A stretch of 43,412 nucleotides of DNA from Bacillota bacterium (GTDB lineage Bacteria > Bacillota > Limnochordia > DTU087). Under the pieces are notes generated by a model that was given only the letters and a program-made list of their open reading frames with translations, was not told the DNA's origin and ran no database searches. The DNA is taken from assembly GCA_012518315.1 (NCBI GenBank), contig JAAYSL010000172.1, positions 1-43,412 on the forward strand, given 5' to 3'. Positions 1 through 2,367 of this stretch are shown here, one piece after another. Every line of letters starts with the position of its first letter. The first letter of the stretch is position 1. Position numbers and translations under genes: made by a program.

Positions 1-433
1 GCCGCTTAACCCAAGTTTCTACATTAGCGACACGACTGGCAAGTGAAGGGGGAAGCCAACCCTCGGGCCTACGTCGATTGGAGAAACGGGGTTTCCGATA
101 ACGTGTTTTACGAGATCGTCTTGCTCGCCTGAGTTGGCGACGGGATAAAAGCGCACCTTGAATCTGTTGCCCGCGGTGGCTCAATTCCGCCGCGAACACA
201 ACTCTACCATTCTTATCATCAGCGATGGCTAGGCCGGTCACTCGGCTGCCCGGGTCAATTTTGAGCCGAAGTGATGAAGGTGCCACATCAGGCACTTCAC
301 GTTTCAGAATAATAGTAAAAGGATATCGACGAAATACTGCCGCCTTACCATCTCGAAGCAGCTGCCTGGCCCTAGCGGGATGACAAGGCTGCAAAGGCCT
401 TTTCTTTGTGTCTAGTACAAATACTTTACTCAT
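1..433 (-). CDS. iscB: IscB-family OMEGA RNA-guided HNH/RuvC nuclease, N-terminal part (truncated by window edge)
   Basis: Manual reverse-complement translation from ATG at 433: MSKVFVLDTKKRPLQPCHPARARQLLRDGKAAVFRRYPFTIILKREVPDVAPSSLRLKIDPGSRVTGLAIADDKNGRVVFAAELSHRGQQIQGALLSRRQLRRARRSRKTRYRKPRFSNRRRPEGWLPPSLASRVANVETWVKR... Shows a PLMP-type N-terminal domain (PLQP), RuvC-I (LKIDPGSRVTGLAI) and Arg-rich bridge helix. Open to the window edge, so not in the ORF track. Confidence 0.9.
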   Translation of the reverse strand, partial: MSKVFVLDTKKRPLQPCHPARARQLLRDGKAAVFRRYPFTIILKREVPDVAPSSLRLKIDPGSRVTGLAIADDKNGRVVFAAELSHRGQQIQGALLSRRQLRRARRSRKTRYRKPRFSNRRRPEGWLPPSLASRVANVETWVKR

Positions 434-665: not shown

Positions 666-680
666 AACTCGCATCTAGAT

Positions 681-721
681 GGGCGCAAGATAGCTATCAC
701 AACGATAGAAAATATGCGCCC
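681..721. terminator. Two-tier hairpin downstream of FGGY kinase, possible terminator without clear U-tract
   Basis: gggcgca(681-687)/tgcgccc(715-721) outer stem, gatag/ctatc inner stem. Confidence 0.35.
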
Positions 722-843: not shown

Positions 844-2367
844 CTAGCCAAGCTCGGCTAGACGGTGCAGCTGACTTTTGAGAGCTATGTAGCTATCAAG
901 ATAAAGCTCGTATAACTCATCATACAAACTTGTATTGGCCTTAGGCTCATACCACTTCCTGATTTGACCCATCTTTCCTAGTGCCTCCCGCCAGTTTGGA
1001 TAGGCACCCACCCCTATTCCTCCTAAGAAGGCTGCCCCAAATACTGTACCATCATCTATACTGGGAACTCCAAGAGGTAACTGGGTAACATCGGCCTTAA
1101 TCTGGCACCATATCTCGCTTTTGGCACCGCCACCGACACTGATCAAATGCGATGGTCTAATCCCTGCTTGAGCAGCCACCTCCAGATTATGCCGGAGGGC
1201 AAACGCAGCACCTTCCATAAGAGCTCTGATTATGTCAGCACGTTTCTTTTCGTAGGAGAGTCCCAAAAAGACTCCCCTTGCCAGAGGATCCCAGATAGGC
1301 GTTCTCTCACCGGCCATATATGGTAGAAATACCAATCCACCGGCACCAGCCGGTGATGTTTCAGCCTCTTGGCTAAGCAGCTCAAAGGGATTTTGTCCAC
1401 CTGTAAGGGGCAGGCCTGCACCCCCAAAAGCCAAGACTTGATCATAAAACCAGCCCAGGACTCCACCACTGACTGTCCCACCAGATAAGTGCCACAGCCC
1501 TTCTATCACATGGCAGCCACTAATTAGCCGCAAGTCTTTATAGGGGCGATCAGTAACAATGGTCATCCCCCCTGCTTGGCCGGCCTGTTCTTGGGTGGCA
1601 CCATGCCAAGTCAACCCAGCTCCAAGACAAGCAGCAGCACAATCCACTCCTCCAGCTACCACCGGGGTACCCGGCAATAGGCCAGTGGCAAGGGCGGCCT
1701 GGGAGGTAACCTCCCCAACTATCACCCCTGATTCGTATACATCGGGAAGCAATCTGTAGTCAACTCCCATGAGCTTGCATGCTTCCGGTGACCAGTTGCG
1801 TTTATCTGTATCAAACACATAGTAACCATAACCCTGGGAGACATCCTGGGTAAATACACCGGTTAGCTTGTATACAATGAAGCTATTTGATTGCAGAAAT
1901 TTATAGGTATCAGCATAGATTTCAGGTTCGTTATTTCTAATCCAAAGCATCTTGGGCACGCAATAGGCAGGATCTATCCTATTGCCACTAAGATGGAGTA
2001 CGTATTCCCCCCCTACCACTTGCTCTAGATGTTGGCACTCCCTAAGTGACCTTCTATCTAGCCATAGCATAGCATGGCGGAGGGGGTTGCCTTGGCGATC
2101 CACAGGCAATGTCGCCCAGCTATGACCCACAACCCCAATAGACGCTACATCCCTGGCACTAAAAGCACCAGCATCTAGGAGCTCTCCGATACACAGGCAA
2201 ACCGCTTGCCACCACCAGTTCCCGTCTTGCTCTGCCTCATAGGCCTTGTCTCGGATGATCTCGTAAGCTTGAGTGGCCGTTCCCAGGGCTTCCCCCGCTA
2301 AGGAAAAAGCGCCCACTTTGCAGCTAGATGTACCGATATCTATTCCTAAAAGGACGTTCTTGGGCAT
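844..2367 (-). CDS. FGGY-family carbohydrate kinase (xylulokinase-like)
   Basis: ORF; N-term LLGIDIGTSSCKVGAFSLAGE, GGVDCAAACLGAG and GGGAKSEIWCQIKADV motifs of FGGY kinases. Confidence 0.88.
   Translation of the reverse strand: MPKNVLLGIDIGTSSCKVGAFSLAGEALGTATQAYEIIRDKAYEAEQDGNWWWQAVCLCIGELLDAGAFSARDVASIGVVGHSWATLPVDRQGNPLRHAMLWLDRRSLRECQHLEQVVGGEYVLHLSGNRIDPAYCVPKMLWIRNNEPEIYADTYKFLQSNSFIVYKLTGVFTQDVSQGYGYYVFDTDKRNWSPEACKLMGVDYRLLPDVYESGVIVGEVTSQAALATGLLPGTPVVAGGVDCAAACLGAGLTWHGATQEQAGQAGGMTIVTDRPYKDLRLISGCHVIEGLWHLSGGTVSGGVLGWFYDQVLAFGGAGLPLTGGQNPFELLSQEAETSPAGAGGLVFLPYMAGERTPIWDPLARGVFLGLSYEKKRADIIRALMEGAAFALRHNLEVAAQAGIRPSHLISVGGGAKSEIWCQIKADVTQLPLGVPSIDDGTVFGAAFLGGIGVGAYPNWREALGKMGQIRKWYEPKANTSLYDELYELYLDSYIALKSQLHRLAELG

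What the first reader, a model, noticed from the sequence alone, without database searches (positions are those of the whole stretch)
1..433. Edge-truncated IscB, an OMEGA RNA-guided nuclease missed by the ORF track
The minus strand from 433 to beyond position 1 encodes a recognisable IscB N-terminus: PLMP-like domain with PLQP instead of PLMP, RuvC-I with its Asp, and a full Arg-rich bridge helix. No frameshift or stop occurs in the visible 144 codons, so it may be intact. IscB is the proposed ancestor of Cas9. The rest (HNH, RuvC-II/III) lies outside the window.
Basis: partly seen in the sequence, partly recalled or inferred. Interest (0 to 1): 0.85.

Follow-up and report, generated by a model that had tools for sequence, protein, structure and literature searches.

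The report
IscB nuclease element split by contig break
The window edge cuts through a normal IscB (a Cas9-like RNA-guided nuclease carried by a small mobile element) with its guide RNA; the other half lies on another contig of the same genome and only about 28 bases are unseen, so it is a new but ordinary member of a known family.

Summary
Window 433→1 (minus strand) encodes the first 144 residues of an IscB (NCBIfam guided_IscB 202.8 bits, cut-off 175). Just upstream lies a full-length omega RNA (Rfam HEARO, window 665-455, 151.8 bits, gathering 83). Position 1 is a contig end. The missing half lies at the end of contig C204 of the same genome: RuvC-II Glu, HNH and RuvC-III, then a normal stop. 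In 93 of 93 homologues exactly 10 residues separate the two halves, so only about 28 nt are unseen. Two facts join the contigs. In ten related genomes the flanking sugar-kinase gene is followed directly by the Zn-alcohol dehydrogenase (ADH) gene that follows iscB on C204. Joining the two flanks recreates the undisturbed site of the nearest relatives. The element (about 1529 nt, about 422-aa IscB) therefore sits after codon 3 of that gene, between ...GAGTT and GTGGC..., without target duplication. The natural guide, CTTGCGCCCATCTAGATGCGAGTT, matches the element's own empty site. A decayed second copy on C240 also sits before GTGG. All 96 strongly conserved residues of the family are kept. No intact Y1 transposase was found. 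This is a new member of a known kind.

The parts
1..433 (-). iscB 5' part (144 codons + 1 base): PLMP-like domain (PLQP, residues 13-16), RuvC-I (D60), bridge helix (~98-116). Runs off the contig start.
455..665 (-). omega RNA scaffold (Rfam RF02033 HEARO, full model 1-211); its 5' end at 665 coincides with the left end of the element
666..689 (-). natural guide of the omega RNA, 5'-CTTGCGCCCATCTAGATGCGAGTT-3' (24 nt assumed from the spacer preference of HEARO MG35-1). Host DNA: the last bases before and the first three codons (ATG CGA GTT) of the interrupted ADH gene
   Evidence: PMC9755519
844..2367 (-). FGGY-family sugar kinase, the left flanking gene; in relatives followed directly by the ADH gene
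1..1 (.). Contig break. About 28 unseen nt, then contig C204 61130 to 60323 (minus strand) with the iscB 3' part (RuvC-II, HNH, RuvC-III, C-terminal domain, stop), the right-end nested hairpin, element end before GTGG at C204 ~60294, then the ADH gene

Best explanation
An IscB (OMEGA) mobile element of about 1529 nt, split by an assembly break, encodes an apparently intact ~422-aa IscB and its omega RNA. It is inserted after codon 3 of a Zn-ADH gene inside a sugar-metabolism operon. Shown: the two halves, the omega RNA, the flanks, the empty site in relatives, both ends and the target 5'-...GAGTT|GTGGC. Inferred: the omega RNA is transcribed through the left junction, so its first ~24 nt are host sequence and guide IscB to the empty (element-free) site next to a motif beginning GTGG. 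Cleavage with RuvC plus HNH there would cause repair from an element-bearing copy, which retains or spreads the element. Movement would need a Y1 transposase in trans.
For: IscB family scores for both halves. Complementary profile coverage, 1-141 and 152-314, with a gap of exactly 10 residues in 93/93 homologues. All catalytic residues, and all 96 columns at least 95% conserved, kept. HEARO RNA at 151.8 bits immediately upstream. Kinase-ADH adjacency in ten relatives, and joined flanks that align with undisturbed G001 and G004. Right-end nested hairpin with RTGR shortly after it, also seen in relatives (18 of 45 against 6 of 45 at a control position). A second, decayed HEARO copy on C240, sitting before GTGG where relatives lack it. 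Guide matches its own locus only.
Against: About 28 nt of the gene are not in the assembly, so a stop or frameshift there cannot be excluded. No expression, cleavage or motif-requirement data exist. No intact Y1 transposase was found, only 24-26 aa fragments, so present mobility is doubtful.
Confidence: 0.9

Rival explanations
1. The two contig ends come from two different, each truncated, iscB copies, or a binning mix, and do not form one gene.
For: The assembly has 281 contigs and 3% contamination; mobile elements often break assemblies.
Against: Only one N-terminal half, one C-terminal half and one intact HEARO exist in the genome. Profile coverage and orientation are complementary. The kinase-ADH adjacency in ten relatives and the exact reconstitution of the empty site join these very contigs.
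Confidence: 0.04
2. A decaying, inactive IscB pseudogene.
For: 28 nt unseen; the other copy in this genome (C240) has decayed to a partial omega RNA; no transposase.
Against: 412 visible codons without a stop and every strongly conserved residue kept, so there is no visible decay.
Confidence: 0.1
3. A domesticated IscB that now regulates the sugar operon through its guide (which covers the ADH start) instead of maintaining the element.
For: Guide sequence spans the ADH start codon; same orientation as the operon; an alternative start for ADH is supplied by the element.
Against: The guide's position is the automatic result of insertion; the nuclease residues are intact; the IscB is absent from the other genomes of the family, so there is no sign of long retention.
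Confidence: 0.03

Closest known systems
IscB / HEARO OMEGA systems (RF02033 RNA + NF040563 protein; ISC elements of the IS200/IS605 type)
   Same: PLMP-like N-terminus, RuvC-I, bridge helix, RuvC-II, HNH, RuvC-III, full HEARO RNA directly 5' of the gene, structured ends, no target duplication, insertion before RTGR
   Different: Only ~60-72% identical to the nearest loci (Chloroflexi MAG L012: 72% N half, 67% C half); flank motif GTGG where ATGA, GTGA and ATGG are the commoner forms
Cas9d / type II CRISPR nucleases
   Same: RuvC + HNH arrangement
   Different: Size ~422 aa; Cas9d model only 9.7 bits with cut-off 375; single HEARO-type guide RNA
IsrB
   Same: PLMP, RuvC, bridge helix, omega RNA
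   Different: IsrB lacks HNH; here HNH is present (PF14279 47.6 bits, PF01844 46.4 bits)

Membership tests
IscB (OMEGA) | PLMP-like N-terminal domain, RuvC-I Asp and Arg-rich bridge helix | tested here: met
IscB (OMEGA) | RuvC-II Glu, HNH, RuvC-III His/Asp in one reading frame | tested here: met
   Present on C204 in an open frame; the single frame is inferred across 28 unseen nt
IscB (OMEGA) | HEARO / omega RNA directly upstream of the gene | tested here: met
   151.8 bits, gathering 83
IscB (OMEGA) | Guide equals the host flank at the element's left end; empty site rebuilt by joining the flanks | tested here: met
   against G001 and G004
IscB (OMEGA) | RNA-guided cleavage next to a target-adjacent motif | not testable with these tools
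   needs in vitro or plasmid interference assay
Autonomous IS200/IS605-type ISC element | Own Y1 transposase gene | tested here: not met
   none within the element; only 24-26 aa PF01797 fragments elsewhere in the assembly
IsrB | No HNH domain | tested here: not met
   HNH present
Cas9d | Cas9d model above cut-off | tested here: not met
   9.7 bits with cut-off 375 on the N half

The most novel reading that the evidence does not exclude
The insertion has been tolerated because the element supplies the interrupted ADH gene with a new start (GTG at the junction, or ATG in the overlapping end of iscB), so nuclease and host enzyme are translationally coupled and the guide polices the ADH start region.
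Probability: 0.1. Interest if true: 0.45.

Novelty: new member of a known kind. Interest (0 to 1): 0.27.

Why it matters
It adds an apparently intact, compact IscB (~422 aa) with its natural guide, both element ends, an empty site in relatives and a predicted target-adjacent motif starting GTGG. That is a ready test case for IscB target choice and element retention, but it does not change the picture of the family.

Tried and rejected
HNH protein on C111 (34 bits) rejected as IscB: it matches the HNH part only. First version of the right-end structure test was too strict and kept 14 loci; repeated with looser limits. The key early papers (Kapitonov 2015; Altae-Tran 2021) are not in the library, so the ATGA/GTGA insertion preference rests on my own knowledge. 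An IsrB or Cas9d assignment was rejected. No structure prediction was run, because the sequence evidence is decisive.

Full report
Observation. The minus strand of window 433→1 is a single open frame of 144 codons starting with ATG. It matches Pfam RRXRR (193 bits) and NCBIfam guided_IscB (202.8 bits, cut-off 175, profile 1-141 of 314) and solved IscB proteins such as TbaIscB and OgeuIscB. Immediately upstream, window 665-455 (minus) is a complete HEARO RNA, the omega RNA of IscB (151.8 bits, gathering 83). It is the only Rfam hit at gathering level in the window.

The missing half. Window position 1 is the first base of contig C35 of a 2.72 Mb, 281-contig genome. A search of that genome with the IscB model finds one other strong piece: C204 60656-61129 (minus), profile 152-314, 226.5 bits, ending at the end of that contig. 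It reads SMELVKFD..., HNH...HWIDALCVG... and ends in a normal stop. In 93 of 93 full-length homologues exactly 10 residues lie between the homologous points. Each contig end carries one extra base of a partial codon, so about 28 nt are missing if the frame is kept. The contig ends do not overlap.

Are the two contigs neighbours? In ten related genomes the kinase gene (window 844-2367) is followed directly by the Zn-ADH gene that in this genome lies downstream of the iscB half on C204. Joining the host flanks of the element gives GCGCCCATCTAGATGCGAGTT|GTGGCAATTCATGG. Relative G001 has GCGCCCAAACAAGATGAGAGTTGCGGCAATTCACGG and G004 the corresponding TTAGTGAGAGTTGTAGCAATTCACGG. This fixes the insertion point to within one base: after ATG CGA GTT, codon 3 of ADH, without target duplication. 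The element is about 665 + 28 + 836 = 1529 nt, and IscB about 144 + 10 + 268 = 422 aa.

Integrity. Against 93 homologues, all 96 columns conserved in at least 95% are unchanged, including D60, E157, H212, N226, N235, H304, D307 and the four HNH-region Cys. PLQP is within the family's range: the third position is mostly Asn. In a tree of 94 IscB proteins it groups with Chloroflexi MAG sequences L012 (100/94 support) and L042. None of the other ten genomes of the same family has an IscB above cut-off, which suggests horizontal arrival (inference).

Ends and target. The right end folds as an outer stem (GCCGA/TCGGC) around CCCCACGACTAAAGGCGTGGG, followed 9 nt later by GTGG. The left end carries a like hairpin, CCCACGACTAAAGTCGTGAG. 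Among 45 loci where such a nested hairpin was found, RTGR starts +4..+11 after it in 18, against 6 in a control position further downstream. This fits the ATGA/GTGA target preference of HEARO elements (own knowledge; the source papers are not held). The same genome holds a decayed second copy: C240 20498-20701 (minus), HEARO 37.5 bits, without iscB. Relatives read GTTAATATATGTGG, whereas here GTTAATATAT is followed by the HEARO start GTCAACTACCC. So both insertions lie before GTGG.

Mechanism. Transcription through the left junction gives an omega RNA whose 5' end is host DNA. With the 24-nt preference of HEARO MG35-1 (PMC9755519) the guide would be CTTGCGCCCATCTAGATGCGAGTT, found in this genome only at its own place. 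The matching target is the empty site, next to GTGG. By analogy with the IS200/605 nuclease TnpB, which records its insertion site in its guide and cuts element-free copies (PMC11870625), IscB would keep or spread the element. That step is inferred. No intact Y1 transposase was seen, so any movement would be in trans or no longer occurs.

Effect on the host. The ADH gene lost its ATG and first three codons. The frame after the junction is intact and could start at GTG (the target itself) or at an ATG in the overlapping end of iscB. Which start is used is not known.

Verdict. A real, apparently intact IscB element and a new member of a known kind. It is a useful, well-delimited test case, but not surprising.

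Noticed in passing
L008 1501-1704 (G000:C240 20498-20701, minus): Decayed HEARO/omega RNA without iscB, inserted before GTGG upstream of the thrS T-box leader; absent in relatives G001 and G004, right end lost.
   Followed up: yes
G054 (loci L172, L177, L180): A genome of the same class with 13 HEARO matches (8 over the gathering score) but hardly any IscB; possible stand-alone omega RNAs or many contig-edge copies.
   Followed up: no
G025 (loci L157, L175, L179, L181): A genome of the same class with 15 IscB pieces, many with stops, and 9 weak HEARO matches: a burst of elements now in decay.
   Followed up: no
L136 10324-10364: The end of iscB overlaps an in-frame upstream extension of the ADH frame (GTG/ATG starts), so the element may supply the gene's new start.
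   Followed up: partly
G074:C214 59727-61003 (L154): IscB of a same-phylum genome matched in two pieces (profile 1-221 and 111-314): frameshifted, or two overlapping copies.
   Followed up: no
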